This document shows positions 513-6,295 of a stretch of 6,295 nucleotides of DNA, one piece after another (positions within the stretch are counted from its first letter, which is position 1; each line of letters begins with the position of its first letter). The DNA comes from an uncultured Candidatus Saccharibacteria bacterium (lineage in GTDB: Bacteria; Patescibacteria; Saccharimonadia; Saccharimonadales; UBA1547). Both the position numbers and the translations under genes were made by a program. The stretch covers positions 1-6,295 of the forward strand of contig CAMPIW010000021.1 in assembly GCA_946886635.1 (NCBI GenBank), read 5' to 3'. The notes under the pieces were generated by a model. The model saw nothing but the letters and a program-made list of their open reading frames with translations, did no database searches and was not told where the DNA came from.

Positions 513-1430
513 CTAAAGTAGTGGGAGAACGAATAAGTAAAAAGCAACGCCTGCGCCTGCGCCTAAAATAACAAGCAAAAGAATCCAGATAACCGTCCAT
601 ACGCCTGAGTGCTTTTTAGGAGCTGCGGTAAGCGGTTGATGATAATTTTCGGTATCAAATATTGCACCTGATTCTTGCAATTTCACTTCTTGTTCGGTGT
701 ACTGCTGAGTGATTGACGTTGGACCAGTAGGTTGGTTAGATGCTTCCGCCGCAGGTGCAGTCGCTTTATCTTCAGATTCAACCGAAGTTTCAAGTTCATC
801 AAGTTGTTCGATAGTTTGTTCGGTCGCTTCATCCTCAACCTTAAAAGGAGCTCCTGTATCTTCATTTTCTGAATCTAAGGCTGAAGATTGGGCTGCAAAA
901 TCAATCGGGTCGGGATAATTAGCTTCAAGCAGTAGCTCTTCTTCAGGTGCTTCAAGTAACGTCTGTGGTTCGGTTTCTTCTGACTCTTCAGGCTTTTTTG
1001 ACTCTTCAGGCTCAGGTTCTGACTGAGCTTGAGATGAAGGTTCAGGCCCCACGCCACCAAGTGGACGCTTTTCAACTTTTGCATCACTTAAAAAGGGTGA
1101 TTCAAGTGGTTTTGGCCCCTCGTCAATGGGTTGATCTTCAGGAACCTCTAAAGATGATTGTTCGTCTTGCACCTTCGAAGGAGTAACGAAAGCCGGCGCC
1201 GAACGGGTGCGCATATCAGATGATGGGTGAACCACGTCCATAAAACGCCCTGATGTTCGTCGCGCCGCTGGCGCTACCTTCGTCGTTGAAATTTCTGGAT
1301 CTTCTGTAGTTTTTGAGGTTTCCGAAACCGTTACAACTGAAGTGTCTTCTTTTTTTGTCACATCCGTCGAATCAGTGCCTATAGCGCCTGCAACCGCCTT
1401 GTCGAGTTCGTCAAAATCGAATTCGGACAT
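513..1430 (-). CDS. Acidic, low-complexity protein with a single C-terminal membrane anchor, function unknown
   Basis: A 305-residue protein I cannot assign to a family. The first 270 or so residues are hydrophilic and rich in Glu, Asp, Ser, Thr and Pro, so probably disordered. The one conspicuous non-acidic island is RRTSGRFMDVVHPSSDMR (57-74), which looks like a short linear motif. An acidic, Pro-rich stretch around 135-170 contains an imperfect EPEESKKPEESEE repeat; at DNA level TGACTCTTCAGGCT recurs with an 18-bp period at 981 and 999. After a basic KKHSG (272-276) comes one long hydrophobic segment (about 277-303) ending at the C terminus. This is a tail-anchor layout, with the acidic domain predicted in the cytoplasm. 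The ATG lies 7 bp after the tpiA stop, with a weak AGG overlapping that stop, so translation is probably coupled to tpiA. It may be a scaffold or envelope-associated protein, but the sequence does not show which. Confidence 0.85.
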   Translation of the reverse strand: MSEFDFDELDKAVAGAIGTDSTDVTKKEDTSVVTVSETSKTTEDPEISTTKVAPAARRTSGRFMDVVHPSSDMRTRSAPAFVTPSKVQDEQSSLEVPEDQPIDEGPKPLESPFLSDAKVEKRPLGGVGPEPSSQAQSEPEPEESKKPEESEETEPQTLLEAPEEELLLEANYPDPIDFAAQSSALDSENEDTGAPFKVEDEATEQTIEQLDELETSVESEDKATAPAAEASNQPTGPTSITQQYTEQEVKLQESGAIFDTENYHQPLTAAPKKHSGVWTVIWILLLVILGAGAGVAFYLFVLPLL

Positions 1431-3508: not shown

Positions 3509-4921
3509 TTATTCTATCACGCGAACTTTAATTGTGTCAGTAGTTCCAATGACGCCAGGTTGTTGGCCGCTCACAATAATAACCTTTGCTTTTTCTTCAC
3601 CAAAGAAACCTTGTTCTTTTAGCTCTTTTGCAAGATCGAACCCAGCCTCTGGCCCATCTGGTCGGACATAACTTCGGTTAGCGTAACTCAATCCAAGTTG
3701 TTGCGCAGCGCGCTGCTCGCTGGTAACACTAATAATTGGCAAGTTAGGACGATGCGCGGCAATGGTTGCTGCAGTTGCACCCGATTTTGTTTCGGCAATA
3801 ATTGCAGCCACACCAAGTTGCTCGGCAAGACTTACGGTAGCGGTACTAATAGCGTCAAGTTGAATGTTCTCAGCAAGGCTATCGTGCATCGGTTCAACCG
3901 GTGCGTTATCTTGTGTATATAAGATTACCTTTTTCATTGCAGCGACTGTTTCAAGTGGATACCTACCGTTGGCTGTTTCATCAGAAAGCATCACCGTATC
4001 GGCACCCTGTATAACCGCAGCTGCTACGTCGCTAACCTCAGCTCGAGTTGGCTCAGGTGCATCAACCATACTGGCCATCATTTGGGTGGCTACAATACTG
4101 AGTTTTCCATGTTTACGGCAAAGTGCAAGGAGTTTACGCTGAACAATTGGCACAATTTCAGCACCAGCTTCGACGGCAAGGTCACCACGCGCCACCATGA
4201 TACCATCGGTAGCTTTTACGATTTTTTCCATTTCTTCTGGGGTAATTGCTGCTTTGGTTTCAATTTTTGCAATAATTTGGGCTTGTGAGCCACCGGCAAC
4301 AAGAATTTGTCGGAGATTACGTATATCTTCAGCACTTTGGACAAAACTAAGCGCAACATAGTCAATATCCTGAGTAAACCCATATTCGATATCTTTTAAG
4401 TCTTTAGGGGTTAAAATATCACCACCAAAGTCGGTATCAGGCAGGTTAATGCCTTTTTTACTCATTAAAACACCGTCATTTTCAACGCGAAGTTTGATAG
4501 CCGTACTAGAGGTAATCTCAATAACAGTAGTACGAACTTTACCGTCAAAAATGTAGATTGGTTCGCCTACTTTTACTTTTTCGGCCAAGTTGTACTGAAC
4601 AGGAAAGGTAAAGCCGTTATGTTCAGCTCTGTGATCGAGGATAATTTCGTCGCCAGTTTTTACCTCGGTATTTTCATTGAGCATACCAAGACGAATCTTT
4701 GGACCCTGAAGATCTTGAAGAATCGCAACTGGTTTACCGTTTTTAGCACTCGCTTCGCGAATCCAACGAATTTGCTCGGTTCGCTCTTCATAATCACCGT
4801 GGCTAAAATTAAGTCGAAGCCCGTTAACCCCTGCTTCGATGAGCTTTTCAATCATTTCTGGCGTGCTGGTGATTGGCCCTATGGTTGCGAGGATTTTTGT
4901 TCGTTTAAAGATGATTGCCAT
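3509..4921 (-). CDS. pyk: Pyruvate kinase, predicted K+-independent (Lys117-type)
   Basis: Converts phosphoenolpyruvate and ADP to pyruvate and ATP, the last step of glycolysis. The protein has 470 residues, so the A, B and C domains are all present. Visible motifs are KILATIGP (9-16); LRLNFSHG (35-42), with Arg36, Asn38 and Ser40 for substrate and K+/phosphate contacts; DLQGPKIR (70-77); the catalytic IIAKIE (216-221) with Lys219 and metal ligand Glu221; ARGDLAVE (244-251) with metal ligand Asp247; and VATQMM (277-282) with Thr279. The C domain includes an ETKSGATA segment resembling the effector-phosphate loop. A longer frame reaching 4981 would start inside the tRNA gene, so the ATG at 4921, opening MAIIFKRTKILATIGP, is chosen. 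Only a distant, weak purine-rich stretch precedes it. Lys75 occupies the position of rabbit Glu117, and Ala249 replaces the usual Gly of GDLGVE. It lies 48 bp after the tRNA with no terminator between. Confidence 0.97.
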   Translation of the reverse strand: MAIIFKRTKILATIGPITSTPEMIEKLIEAGVNGLRLNFSHGDYEERTEQIRWIREASAKNGKPVAILQDLQGPKIRLGMLNENTEVKTGDEIILDHRAEHNGFTFPVQYNLAEKVKVGEPIYIFDGKVRTTVIEITSSTAIKLRVENDGVLMSKKGINLPDTDFGGDILTPKDLKDIEYGFTQDIDYVALSFVQSAEDIRNLRQILVAGGSQAQIIAKIETKAAITPEEMEKIVKATDGIMVARGDLAVEAGAEIVPIVQRKLLALCRKHGKLSIVATQMMASMVDAPEPTRAEVSDVAAAVIQGADTVMLSDETANGRYPLETVAAMKKVILYTQDNAPVEPMHDSLAENIQLDAISTATVSLAEQLGVAAIIAETKSGATAATIAAHRPNLPIISVTSEQRAAQQLGLSYANRSYVRPDGPEAGFDLAKELKEQGFFGEEKAKVIIVSGQQPGVIGTTDTIKVRVIE

Positions 4922-4969
4922 AGTAAGAGGCCGCCCTTCGTTATTGGTTTGTCCTTTGGTCGGTTCTTT

Positions 4970-5044
4970 TGGTGATCTCACGGAGAATCGAACTCCGATT
5001 GCCAGGATGAAAACCTGGTGTCCTAACCGTTAGACGATGAGACC
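4970..5044 (-). tRNA. tRNA-Glu (anticodon UUC), CCA encoded
   Basis: The minus strand folds into a full cloverleaf. The acceptor strands are GGTCTCA (5044-5038) and TGAGATC (4980-4974), with one G-U pair. The D-arm region carries TAACGGTTAGGAC. The anticodon arm is CCAGG, loop TTTTCAT, CCTGG, giving anticodon TTC. The T-arm is CGGAG, loop TTCGATT, CTCCG. The discriminator base is A at 4973, followed by a genomically encoded CCA at 4972-4970. It is the first gene of the glycolytic block, 48 bp before pyk, with no T-tract or hairpin between. Processing of a joint transcript would therefore release both the tRNA and the pyk mRNA. Its 3' end and trailer are mirrored in the leader upstream. Confidence 0.96.
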
Positions 5045-5061
5045 ATGAAGCCGAGTGGAGC

Positions 5062-5116
5062 GTAAAAGTTTACTTTTACAATCCCGAGGCGATTGGTCCT
5101 CATCTCGCTAGAGATG
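5062..5116 (-). other. Hairpins in the leader upstream of tRNA-Glu
   Basis: Two perfect inverted repeats lie between the probable promoter and the tRNA. GTAAAAGT and ACTTTTAC at 5062-5069 and 5072-5079 are separated by two bases. CATCTC and GAGATG at 5101-5106 and 5111-5116 flank a four-base loop, and GGT/ACC at 5095-5097 and 5121-5123 could extend this second one across an internal loop. The second hairpin abuts the leader arm of the long inverted repeat, so the two folds may compete. I tested this stretch as a second tRNA, SRP RNA and T-box leader and found no match. Confidence 0.45.
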
Positions 5117-5163
5117 GATCACCAAAAGAACAAATCAAAGAAACTATTCTTTTTACCTGCGTT

Positions 5164-5169
5164 ATTTTA
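5164..5169 (-). promoter_or_regulatory. Candidate extended -10 promoter for the tRNA-Glu/glycolytic operon
   Basis: The minus strand reads TGG then TAAAAT, a 5-of-6 match to TATAAT with an extended TGn. At 17 bp spacing the -35 position reads TAGCCA (4 of 6), but it overlaps the upstream terminator stem. Transcription would begin near 5157, giving a leader of about 113 bases before the tRNA. It is the best candidate between the upstream terminators and the tRNA, but only moderately convincing. Confidence 0.4.
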
Positions 5170-5171
5170 CC

Positions 5172-5210
5172 AAAAAAACCCCTGTTTGGCTAGTACCTGA
5201 GAGGGGTTTT
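5172..5210 (-). terminator. Rho-independent terminator, minus strand (second of two)
   Basis: AAAACCCCT (5175-5183) pairs with AGGGGTTTT (5202-5210) around an 18-base loop. On the minus strand the stem is followed by seven T residues (complement of 5172-5178), giving a strong terminator for transcription arriving from the GC-rich unit. On the plus strand the T-tract is shorter (TTTTGC), so termination that way would be weaker. Confidence 0.8.
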
Positions 5211-5233
5211 GCTAAAAATCGCACAAATCAATT

Positions 5234-5258
5234 GAAAAACCTCCCTTTTAGGGAGGTT
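5234..5258 (-). terminator. Rho-independent terminator, minus strand (first of two)
   Basis: AACCTCCC (5238-5245) and GGGAGGTT (5251-5258) form an 8-bp stem with a five-base loop. On the minus strand this is followed by TTTTTC. It is the first terminator met after the GC-rich two-gene unit, and a second follows about 25 bases on. Doubling suggests strong transcription that must be kept out of the tRNA/glycolytic operon. Confidence 0.85.
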
Positions 5259-5262
5259 GGGT

Positions 5263-5304
5263 TCCACTGGAGGCCAAGACAACTTCGTCTCGACCCCCAG
5301 TGGA
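5263..5304 (-). ncRNA. 18-bp RNA hairpin in the 3' UTR of the GC-rich unit
   Basis: On the minus strand the 18 bases at 5304-5287 pair with those at 5280-5263 around the six-base loop GAAGTT. All 18 positions pair as RNA: outer TCCACTGG/CCAGTGGA and inner AGAC/GTCT are exact, and the middle GGGTCG/TGGCCT pairs through three G-U wobbles. On the plus strand those wobbles would be A-C mismatches, so the structure makes sense only in the minus-strand transcript. It starts 8 bases after the last stop and lies just before the two terminators. It may be a 3'-end stabiliser, a protein-binding site or the body of a released small RNA. No known family is recognised. Confidence 0.6.
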
Positions 5305-5311
5305 GGTGACA

Positions 5312-5515
5312 TCAGCGCGTGATGCGCGAGTCTGTACCGTCGTCAACGAGGGGTGTGTCGACAACGATGATGATCGTCCCGGTAGCGAGGGCTCGCGAGT
5401 CTGTCGACTCGAGTTCCTCTGCTTGGAGTTCGACCCTGTGAGGATCTACCTCCAGCTTCTGGTCGAAGCCCGGGTGGATCTTCACCTGGTTTCGCCTGGA
5501 ATCCGCCGAAGGCAT
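5312..5515 (-). CDS. Small hypothetical protein, second gene of the GC-rich unit
   Basis: A 67-residue protein with no family I recognise. It opens MPSADSRRNQVKIHPGF; the middle is charged (QKLEVDPHRVELQAEELE, about 19-36). A short hydrophobic TGTIIIVVDTPLV (about 45-57) is too short for a membrane span. The motif TDSR occurs twice (about 38 and 62), from an 11-bp direct repeat CGCGAGTCTGT at 5325 and 5394. I chose the ATG at 5515 because it lies two bases after the upstream stop (TGATCATG), a typical coupling arrangement. An upstream start that would extend this frame into the preceding gene gives low-complexity Arg/Gly/Ser sequence typical of an out-of-frame read. Third positions are mostly G or C, as in the gene before it. 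Its existence as a protein is likely but not certain. Confidence 0.6.
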   Translation of the reverse strand: MPSADSRRNQVKIHPGFDQKLEVDPHRVELQAEELESTDSRALATGTIIIVVDTPLVDDGTDSRITR

Positions 5516-5517
5516 GA

Positions 5518-5970
5518 TCAGGCGATCGCTTCCTGAAGCGAAGGCTCCGCGAAGAGGAGGTGAGGCACGACCTTCGGCATCACTGCCTGTGCTTCCGCTT
5601 CCACCTTCTTCGCTTCCGCCTTGTGCTGGCGGATCTCTTCGCAGTGGAGACGGATCGCCACGCCGCGCGTCCTCTTGCCGAAGCACCGGATCTCTCCGAT
5701 GATTTCGCGAACGGGAACACCGTTCCTGAAGAGGAAGTCGATCAGTTCGAGGAGGTTGTCCTCGGTTTGCTCCTTGTCGAGCTTGCCCTTCTTGCCCTTG
5801 TGGGCGATCTGGCAGACGAGATACATCTCGTACTGCTCGTCGTGCATGAACTGCTGGCTGGTCGGCTCCTCACCGCTCATCGCGGCGTGCGTACGCGAGA
5901 ACAACTCGCGAAGGTTCGGCGTGACAGGCACGCTGAAGTTTCCGACCATGACAACACTGCTCTGGTGCAA
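5518..5970 (-). CDS. Hypothetical protein, first gene of the GC-rich unit
   Basis: A soluble-looking protein of 150 residues from the TTG at 5970; I do not recognise the family. There is no signal peptide or membrane segment. Visible parts are an N-terminal stretch that may start in beta (about 6-16, SVVMVGNFSVPV), a basic linker AHKGKKGKLDKEQ (56-68), a probable helix LLELIDFLF (73-81), then GVPVREIIGEIRCFGKRTRGVAIRLHCEEI (84-113) with Cys96 and Cys110, and a charged Ala/Glu/Lys helix (about 111-130). The frame could begin at another TTG at 5988, but that one has no ribosome binding site; the TTG at 5970 has AGGAG five bases before it. By hand count about four codons in five end in G or C, far above pyk, pgk or tpiA. 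It has its own promoter and terminators, so is probably an acquired gene. The charged tail might bind nucleic acid or a partner, but this is a guess. Confidence 0.75.
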   Translation of the reverse strand: MHQSSVVMVGNFSVPVTPNLRELFSRTHAAMSGEEPTSQQFMHDEQYEMYLVCQIAHKGKKGKLDKEQTEDNLLELIDFLFRNGVPVREIIGEIRCFGKRTRGVAIRLHCEEIRQHKAEAKKVEAEAQAVMPKVVPHLLFAEPSLQEAIA

Positions 5971-6079
5971 TGTGACTCCTGTTTTCAATATCTCGGCACA
6001 ACCCGAGAGGTGTAACCCGACTGGTAAACCGCCTCGAGGGATGAGGCGGAATGGTTGCTTTTCGGCACCCTACACTTAA
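5971..6079 (-). promoter_or_regulatory. Structured 5' leader of the GC-rich unit
   Basis: About 110 untranslated bases separate the predicted start of transcription (near 6079) from the TTG start. CCGCCTC/GAGGCGG (6029-6035 with 6043-6049) forms a 7-bp hairpin with a seven-base loop. TCTCGG/CCGAGA (5991-5996 with 6003-6008) forms a second hairpin just upstream of the AGGAG site. GTGTA (6010-6014) and TACAC (6071-6075) could close the first hairpin into a larger domain. Such a layout could regulate translation or stability, but it matches no riboswitch I know, and there is no run of Us after the first hairpin to make it an attenuator. Confidence 0.5.
5976..5980 (-). promoter_or_regulatory. Shine-Dalgarno site that fixes the TTG start of the 150-residue gene
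   Basis: The minus strand reads AGGAG, then TCACA, then TTG. This five-base spacing is good and is the clearest ribosome binding site in the window. It places the start at 5970 rather than at the TTG at 5988 or the ATG at 5949. Confidence 0.7.
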
Positions 6080-6085
6080 GCGTGA

Positions 6086-6114
6086 AATATACTCCTATTG
6101 ACAAGAAAAGTCAA
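6086..6114 (-). promoter_or_regulatory. Strong sigma-70-type promoter of the GC-rich unit
   Basis: On the minus strand the -35 is TTGACT (6114-6109) and the -10 is TATATT (6091-6086), each 5 of 6 to consensus, with an ideal 17-bp spacer. Transcription would begin near 6079 and read through the structured leader into the 150-residue gene. Its -35 lies in an inverted repeat shared with a possible plus-strand promoter. Confidence 0.75.
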
Positions 6115-6126
6115 ATATTATCTTAT
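6098..6126 (+). promoter_or_regulatory. Possible divergent plus-strand promoter overlapping the GC-unit promoter
   Basis: TTGACA (6098-6103, perfect -35), 17 bp, then TCTTAT (6121-6126, 4 of 6). Its -35 and that of the minus-strand promoter form a TTGAC-7-GTCAA inverted repeat, so the two would compete for polymerase. No good gene follows within the window, so this may be coincidental. Confidence 0.35.
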
Positions 6127-6241
6127 TTAGTGCTTGAGGATACTCGAAGCCGCTAAATATGGTGTCTGGGATTGTTTTTAGATATAGTAACTCCTCTGCC
6201 CCCATAAAGCTTGTGCTTTTTGTATTATATTGTATAAATCA
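6127..6241. other. AT-rich stretch with no convincing gene
   Basis: Neither strand has a supported coding region here. The only plus-strand frame of note (ATG at 6159, 28 codons) lacks a ribosome binding site. AAAGC-TTGT-GCTTT (6206-6219) makes a small 5-bp hairpin followed by a few T residues, a poor terminator candidate. TTGTGC (6211-6216) with TATAAA (6233-6238) at 16 bp could be a second, weaker plus-strand promoter just upstream of the better one. Confidence 0.5.
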
Positions 6242-6270
6242 TTGACATTTTAACAGTTTTGTGATAAATT
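6242..6270 (+). promoter_or_regulatory. Plus-strand promoter reading out of the window
   Basis: A perfect -35 TTGACA (6242-6247), 17-bp spacer, and a -10 TAAATT (6265-6270, 4 of 6) preceded by TGA, i.e. an extended TGn. Transcription would start near 6277 and run rightward beyond the window, so a plus-strand gene or RNA is expected there. It is the only strong evidence for plus-strand expression in this segment. Confidence 0.6.
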
Positions 6271-6295
6271 AAGAGCATCATTCACGGGTGTGGAA

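What the first reader, a model, noticed from the sequence alone, without database searches (positions are those of the whole stretch)
5230..6115. Self-contained GC-rich two-gene cassette with its own promoter, leader, 3' hairpin and double terminator
Seen: two adjacent minus-strand genes (150 and 67 residues, 2 bp apart) with strong G/C third-position bias sit between AT-rich flanks and next to glycolytic genes of mixed codon use. The unit has a near-consensus promoter, a leader of about 110 bases with hairpins, the only strong ribosome binding site in the window, an 18-bp RNA hairpin and two terminators. Neither protein belongs to a family I know. Inference: an insulated, strongly expressed, horizontally acquired or specially codon-adapted cassette, and the best candidate here for an undescribed system.
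Basis: partly seen in the sequence, partly recalled or inferred. Interest (0 to 1): 0.7.

Follow-up and report, generated by a model that had tools for sequence, protein, structure and literature searches.

The report
GC-rich self-contained gene cassette in Saccharibacteria
This stretch looks like one member of a small, distinct set of genes in tiny host-dependent bacteria (Saccharibacteria) that are written in a different, GC-rich codon style and tend to carry their own strong promoter and a long RNA hairpin at the end; it sits in a chromosomal slot whose control region is shared between species while the genes in it differ.

Summary
The cassette is real. Gene 1 (150 aa) has GC3 0.83 against 0.33-0.43 in its neighbours, 20 relatives among 5.8 billion proteins (one labelled Saccharimonadaceae), and no known family or fold. 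Gene 2 is weaker. The 3' hairpin is far beyond chance (z -7.4); the leader hairpins are not.

Two findings go further. (1) The slot is old: 28 of 80 related pyk loci (23 strongly) share the AT-rich divergent-promoter region, and in 22 a GC-rich ORF, usually with no detectable similarity to the window's genes, lies between it and tRNA-Glu/pyk (13 of 27 by a strict test). (2) It belongs to a genome-wide class: in two relatives, 39 of 661 and 20 of 544 called genes form a second GC3 mode (0.67-0.92), with more near-consensus promoters and long GC-rich 3' hairpins. Their 5' flanks are not GC-rich, so regional bias is unlikely. In smaller samples the class shows in two of three more genomes.

Best reading: a moron-like chromosomal cassette, modularly exchanged among Saccharibacteria, probably serving host interaction. 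Why the GC-rich style persists (import, codon selection, use inside the host) is open. My literature searches found no description of it.

The parts
5518..5970 (-). gene 1: 150-aa protein of no known family, TTG start
   Evidence: 20 relatives in a 5.8-billion-protein database, 21-row alignment; GC3 0.83; AlphaFold2 model mean pLDDT 82.3, pTM 0.73, helical with an N-terminal strand pair
5312..5515 (-). gene 2: candidate 67-aa protein
   Evidence: GC3 0.73, weak coding score 10.5; one relative at 97% identity; could be non-functional
6086..6114 (-). promoter of the cassette, TTGACT-17-TATATT
   Evidence: the TTGAC..TATA pattern is conserved in an alignment of 23 relatives plus the window
6098..6114 (.). 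dyad TTGAC/GTCAA spanning the -35 box and spacer, possible operator
   Evidence: seen in many but not all rows of the alignment; function inferred
6150..6165 (.). degenerate copy of a palindrome, ACGCTAnATnTAGCGT in relatives
   Evidence: the same palindrome also occurs at other places in G001 and TM7i, so it is not specific to this locus
6206..6293 (.). conserved AT-rich divergent-promoter region, with a promoter pointing out of the window (TTGACA 6242 to TAAATT 6270, + strand) and the box AAAGCACAAGC (6219-6209, - strand)
   Evidence: 93% identical to L054; found upstream of pyk in 28 of 80 loci, 23 of them at E below 1e-4; promoter match
6029..6049 (-). leader hairpin of 7 bp near the 5' end of the transcript
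   Evidence: the whole leader is not more stable than its shuffles (z -0.87)
5976..5980 (-). Shine-Dalgarno-like AGGAG, 5 nt before the TTG start
   Evidence: sequence
5263..5304 (-). 19-bp GC-rich 3' hairpin right after gene 2
   Evidence: z -7.4 together with the next hairpin; the same kind of hairpin follows most GC-rich class genes of G001 and TM7i
5233..5258 (-). intrinsic terminator, 9-bp stem and T-run
4970..5044 (-). tRNA-Glu(TTC), conserved downstream border of the slot
   Evidence: same order in 18 of 19 relatives scanned with ARAGORN

Best explanation
The window is from a Saccharibacterium, and the cassette is one member of a class of short, GC-rich, self-contained gene units that these host-dependent bacteria carry among ordinary housekeeping genes. 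A unit tends to have its own near-consensus sigma-70 promoter, one or two short ORFs with GC-rich third codon positions, and a long GC-rich hairpin just after the last stop codon that ends or protects the transcript. Here the unit occupies an old chromosomal slot. A conserved AT-rich divergent promoter region drives a leftward operon (in many relatives a membrane or coiled-coil protein plus a larger secreted or lipoprotein-like protein) and a rightward operon of small proteins of unknown function that ends at tRNA-Glu/pyk. The contents of the two arms evolve very fast and, in the pairs I could compare, partly independently, which fits modular replacement by homologous recombination through the conserved flanks (Saccharibacteria are naturally competent). 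Gene 1 would be a small helical cytosolic protein made strongly from this unit. The arms most likely serve interaction or conflict with the actinobacterial host or its phages. Shown: the anatomy, the class in two near-complete genomes (hints in two more), the shared slot. Inferred: strong expression, exchange as the main mechanism, host-related function.
For: Slot and control region. Second GC3 mode: 39 of 661 genes in G001, 20 of 544 in TM7i. Near-consensus promoter within 2 mismatches in 23 of 49 GC-rich genes with enough upstream sequence against 111 of 593 others, p 2.4e-5. 3' folding: -30.6 against -16.2 kcal/mol (34 and 253 genes, p 1.7e-14) in G001, -28.7 against -15.6 (19 and 239 genes, p 1e-7) in TM7i, excess over shuffles -12.7 against -3.9 and -12.8 against -4.4. 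Partial replication: 6 of 226 genes in 400 kb of G002 and 5 of 265 in 400 kb of G053. 5' flanks of GC-rich genes are no more GC-rich than others (0.442 v 0.426; 0.402 v 0.406). The window's gene 1 fits a GC-rich codon model learned from another genome. Fast turnover: 2 of 39 GC-rich genes of G001 have a reciprocal best hit in TM7i, against 413 of 622 others. Modular exchange: L014/L026 right arm 84-89% identical including non-coding parts while left gene L1 is 59%; L003/L012 left gene 78% while the right gene is 41%; L030/L033 left 74-81%, right 56%; dS of several cassette genes is lower than that of pyk in the same pairs. Competence, T4SS and adhesins needed on the host: PMC10633639 (passages); T4SS: PMC12102498 (abstract and passages).
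Against: 400 kb of G062 show one doubtful GC-rich gene only. TM7i has no empty GC3 bin between the modes, and my gene caller used a GC-rich model seeded on GC-rich ORFs, so genes of intermediate GC3 may be under-called. Hydrophobic segments are not enriched in the class in G001 (9 of 39 v 219 of 622) and only mildly in TM7i (9 of 20 v 179 of 524), which does not help the surface-protein idea. Profile comparison of gene 1 with right-arm proteins of other loci is inconclusive: best L028 28.6 and L016 27.1, but one of 60 control proteins also scored 28.6. The palindrome and box are not marks of the whole class. Low dS could also come from constraint on codons, and not every pair shows it (L014/L015 R1 saturated; L007/L014 dS 2.0). 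No functional test exists.
Confidence: 0.6

Rival explanations
1. Ordinary horizontal acquisition: the GC-rich genes are recent, independent imports from GC-rich actinobacterial hosts or their phages that have not yet drifted to the composition of the genome.
For: Some class members have actinobacterial affinity: G001 NrdH is 62-66% identical to Microbacterium and Arthrobacter phage NrdH; G001 has a GC-rich TPM-domain protein; three TM7i proteins end in LAVTG plus a hydrophobic stretch and basic tail (meaning of the motif recalled). Long 3' hairpins mostly without a U-run resemble the I-shaped hairpins described as fairly common in GC-rich mycobacteria (PMC5335608, passages).
Against: The slot and its promoter region are shared across species. 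Left-arm proteins are homologous between species at 25-75% identity and still GC-rich (fourfold sites 0.60-0.82 GC against 0.36-0.63 in pyk). TM7i ThyA has only 52-56% matches among the plasmid rows listed, from several phyla.
Confidence: 0.2
2. Codon selection: the genes are old residents and their GC-rich codons are kept by selection, for very high expression or for very stable, structured mRNA (for example in free cells waiting for a host).
For: GC-rich third positions persist in diverged homologues; strong promoters and 3' hairpins; own-tRNA adaptation index is higher for the class in G001 (0.615 v 0.582, p 1.4e-9); 5' flanks are not GC-rich.
Against: EF-Tu has GC3 0.44 in both genomes. 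In TM7i the index is equal (0.557 v 0.558). In the Pro box the class avoids CCA (0.05 and 0.07 v 0.43 and 0.44) and uses CCC and CCG although only a Pro(TGG) tRNA was found.
Confidence: 0.15
3. Chance or artefact: a GC-rich misassembled segment, or spurious ORFs in a GC-rich spot.
For: Most relatives of gene 1 sit on contigs of 0.5-6 kb; gene 2 is weak; the GC-rich class was called with a home-made caller.
Against: Same flanks in the same order in L054; 20 relatives with conserved columns; codon model from another genome fits gene 1; 3' hairpin z -7.4.
Confidence: 0.03

Closest known systems
Phage 'morons' (independently regulated extra genes in prophages; glossary definition seen in PMC7380047; 'own promoter and terminator, odd base composition' is recalled)
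   Same: Short gene or gene pair with its own promoter and terminator, base composition unlike its neighbours, unknown products, variable between relatives.
   Different: Lies in the chromosome among glycolytic genes, not in a prophage; many such units per genome; shared codon style and long 3' hairpins; fixed slot with a conserved divergent promoter region.
I-shaped (U-less) intrinsic hairpins of GC-rich mycobacteria (PMC5335608, passages)
   Same: Long GC-rich hairpin after a gene, mostly without a U-run.
   Different: Found in a genome of ordinary GC; in the window a U-tailed terminator follows the hairpin; termination untested.
tRNA-associated genomic islands
   Same: Variable genes next to a tRNA gene.
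   Different: On the 5' side of the tRNA, no integrase ORF and no direct repeat of 14 nt or more in 4900-6295, content bounded by conserved promoters.

Membership tests
Phage moron | sits inside a phage or prophage genome | tested here: not met
   window neighbours are tpiA-, pgk- and pyk-like genes and tRNA-Glu; gene 1 has no PHROGs match at E 1 or better; whole genome not held
Phage moron | independent regulation (own promoter and terminator) | tested here: met
   by sequence only:
Phage moron | fitness advantage to the carrier | not testable with these tools
   no experiment
tRNA-associated genomic island | integrase and direct repeats at the borders | tested here: not met
   no integrase among the ORFs of the window (judged by eye; Pfam run on three ORFs only); 0 direct-repeat families of 14 nt or more in 4900-6295; the window ends at 6295, so the far border is not covered
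Toxin-antitoxin or defence system | match to a known toxin, antitoxin or defence family | tested here: inconclusive
   no PADLOC match at E 0.1 for 7 proteins including genes 1 and 2; no NCBIfam match for genes 1 and 2; Pfam best 0.0098, below cut-off; a new family is not excluded
I-shaped terminator | GC-rich hairpin without U-run that terminates transcription | tested here: inconclusive
   hairpin met; a U-tailed hairpin follows in the window; termination not testable here
GC-rich cassette class described here | GC3 far above the genome, near-consensus promoter, long 3' hairpin | tested here: met
   class defined

The most novel reading that the evidence does not exclude
Saccharibacteria keep a second gene set written in the codon dialect, and ended by the hairpin style, of their GC-rich actinobacterial hosts because these units act in the host: their DNA or mRNA is delivered through the type IV secretion apparatus and expressed there. 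Gene 1 would be one such host-expressed effector.
Probability: 0.06. Interest if true: 0.97.

Novelty: new variant of a known kind. Interest (0 to 1): 0.7.

Why it matters
Most genes that let Saccharibacteria live on other bacteria are unknown. A discrete gene set that can be recognised from sequence alone (odd codon style, strong promoter, long 3' hairpin) and that turns over fast between species is a short, testable list of candidates for host interaction, and the conserved divergent promoter region next to tRNA-Glu/pyk marks one such locus across species. A second codon-usage mode in a reduced genome also raises a clean question: import, selection, or expression in another cell.

Tried and rejected

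Rejected: regional GC bias or GC-biased gene conversion (5' flanks of class genes are not GC-rich; the AT-rich promoter region persists inside the slot). A common regulon through the palindrome, dyad or box: these also occur elsewhere and are not confined to the class. A clear difference in Shine-Dalgarno strength: only modest (best-site energy at most -7 in 0.54 v 0.42 in G001, nulls 0.26 and 0.22; 0.70 v 0.42 in TM7i, nulls 0.30 and 0.27; I assumed the 16S tail, the search for it printed nothing). Misadaptation to own tRNAs as proof of host expression: not borne out overall. Structure of the second right-arm family: alignment A3 too poor, so the second structure job was not used. Rfam on five relatives found tRNAs only.

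Rows dropped: the promoter-region alignment uses 23 of the 28 loci plus the window; the five weakest (L025, L027, L032, L074, L077) were left out. Right-arm proteins (34) were hand-picked from the ORF list. 12 of 80 loci were too short for the strict count. The tRNA test there is a pattern match, not ARAGORN. One search listed 20 of 80 papers; I opened four papers, all in part.

Full report
What the window is. The window carries, on the minus strand, tpiA-, pgk- and pyk-like genes, tRNA-Glu(TTC) and then the cassette (names of the glycolytic genes by eye). The pyk protein is up to 88% identical (best segment) to Saccharibacteria (L054, isolate 49-20), and 80 related loci were fetched out of 91 that qualified. 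No whole genome is held for the window.

The observation. Genes 1 and 2 are at 5518-5970 and 5312-5515, 2 bp apart. GC3 is 0.83 and 0.73 against 0.33-0.43 for five other coding stretches of the window. Gene 1 scores 50.3 with the GC-rich codon model of relative G001 and 10.8 with its typical model; for pyk, pgk, tpiA and the ORF at 513-1430 it is the reverse. Gene 2 scores 10.5 and -2.3, weak. The promoter has 10 of 12 consensus positions. The 19-bp 3' hairpin plus terminator has z -7.4. The leader has z -0.87, and the second terminator lies in the conserved tRNA flank.

The family of gene 1. A first search gave 6 proteins at E 1 or better, a profile search 20, the weakest at 6e-14. All but one sit on contigs of 523 to 5822 bases; P0022 sits on a 644-kb contig named Candidatus Saccharimonadaceae. 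The 21-row alignment has 13 invariant columns. Pfam, PHROGs, NCBIfam and PADLOC give nothing above cut-off for gene 1. The AlphaFold2 model is good in its first 120 residues (mean pLDDT 82.3) but has no meaningful match in PDB or viral models. Gene 2 has one relative at 97% identity.

The slot. In L054 the flanks of the cassette are conserved on both sides, yet between them lie other GC-rich ORFs of 185 and 123 codons with GC3 0.88-0.89. The conserved region (window 6206-6293) was found upstream of pyk in 28 of 80 loci, 23 of them at E below 1e-4. Between it and tRNA-Glu, 22 of the 28 (all but one of the 23) have a rightward ORF of at least 40 codons with GC3 above 0.55, a loose criterion that also admits chance ORFs. 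With a strict test (at least 75 codons, GC3 at least 0.15 above pyk, codon score above 15) it is 13 of 27, and 0 of 41 loci without the region. The alignment of 23 of these regions with the window shows a rightward promoter, a leftward promoter, a box AAAGCACAAGC, a TTGAC/GTCAA dyad in many rows and a palindrome. Leftward, many loci have a GC-rich membrane or coiled-coil protein and a larger secreted, Pro-rich protein; the larger ones are homologous between a number of species at 25-75% identity.

Fast and partly independent turnover. Right-arm proteins of different loci are mostly unrelated by BLAST; clear pairs are L014/L026 (78% and 86%), L030/L033 (29%) and L014/L015 (30%) (small database). 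Gene 1's profile hits L016's ORF at E 0.0016 in that small set, but profile-profile scores of L028 and L016 (28.6, 27.1) are matched by one of 60 controls (28.6), so common descent of gene 1 with other right-arm genes is not shown. In L014/L026 the right arm, non-coding parts included, is 84-89% identical while left gene L1 is 59%; in L003/L012 the left gene L2 is 78% and the right gene 41%; in L030/L033 left parts are 74-81% and the right gene 56%. Synonymous divergence of L014/L026 R1 and R2 is 0.35 and 0.42 against 1.25 for pyk; L003/L012 L2 0.57 against saturated; L030/L033 L2 0.69 against 3.2; L006/L054 L2 0.81 against saturated. More distant pairs give 1.3-2.0 or saturation. This fits exchange by recombination among Saccharibacteria, but codon constraint could lower dS too. 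dN/dS was 0.21-0.77 where it could be computed for cassette genes, so these ORFs are under some constraint.

A genome-wide class. I joined the pieces of two relatives and called genes with a simple two-model caller. G001: 661 genes, 622 with GC3 below 0.64 and 39 at 0.68 or above, none between. TM7i: 544 genes, 20 with GC3 above 0.64, no empty gap. The GC-rich model was seeded on GC-rich ORFs, so intermediate genes may be missed. The class is mostly short (median 181 and 223 codons against 320). Reciprocal best hits between the two genomes: 2 of 39 class genes, 413 of 622 others. Of 30 class genes of G001 with syntenic flanks in TM7i, 12, at five sites including the pyk slot, face a class gene there (no chance control). 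Promoters within two mismatches: 23 of 49 against 111 of 593, p 2.4e-5. The 70 nt after the stop fold at -30.6 against -16.2 kcal/mol in G001 and -28.7 against -15.6 in TM7i, and T5 runs are rarer, not commoner (0.09 v 0.22; 0.16 v 0.20); the hairpins are 14-19 bp in many cases. In 400-kb samples, G002 has 6 of 226 class genes (3' fold -33.7 for 5 of them; promoter 3 of 5 v 18 of 132), G053 5 of 265 (-33.4 for 4; 3 of 5 v 19 of 155) and G062 one doubtful call of 226.

Why GC-rich? 5' flanks of class genes have ordinary GC (0.442 v 0.426; 0.402 v 0.406) while GC3 is 0.81 and 0.74, so the cause acts on coding sequence. 3' flanks are GC-richer (0.537 v 0.448; 0.508 v 0.426), as the hairpins require. 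EF-Tu has GC3 0.44 in both, so the style is not simply that of highly expressed genes. Against its own tRNAs the class is slightly better adapted in G001 and equal in TM7i, although in the Pro box it avoids the codon of the only tRNA found. Class members include an NrdH close to actinophage NrdH, a TPM-domain protein, a ThyA and surface-like proteins. I therefore leave import, selection and use inside the host open, in that order of my belief after the combined reading given above.

Literature. Ten searches of an open-licence library; eight concerned Saccharibacteria or Patescibacteria and none of their listings describes such a class; 80 papers fitted and 20 were listed. Opened in part: PMC12102498 (abstract and passages), PMC10633639, PMC5335608 and PMC7380047 (passages). 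Subscription papers and preprints were not searchable, so 'undescribed' is limited to this.

Verdict. A real, self-contained cassette in a conserved slot, and one of a class that deserves a proper survey. The function of gene 1 is unknown; host interaction is my best guess, not a result.

Noticed in passing
L030 4467-4860 and L033 (also L003/L012): The leader of the leftward operon is more conserved than pyk (91% and 81% identity against 80%) and holds GGAGGTCGTTAACAAGTCAGATC, found once in G001 and once, with changes, in TM7i, both at this locus: perhaps a structured leader RNA. Rfam found nothing there.
   Followed up: partly
TM7i 431939, 457122 and 624490 (in loci L159, L160, L169): Three GC-rich secreted-looking proteins end in LAVTG plus a hydrophobic stretch and a basic tail, like sortase signals (recalled).
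   Followed up: no
window 4954-4977 and 5117-5140: 24-nt inverted repeat (88%) around tRNA-Glu; the window has an extra stretch with small hairpins between this arm and the tRNA that L054 lacks.
   Followed up: no
window 513-1430: 305-aa acidic protein with a C-terminal hydrophobic stretch, no Pfam match above cut-off.
   Followed up: no
G001 and TM7i: Only one Pro (TGG) and one Ala (TGC) tRNA gene were found in each, although the GC-rich class favours C- and G-ending Pro and Ala codons.
   Followed up: partly
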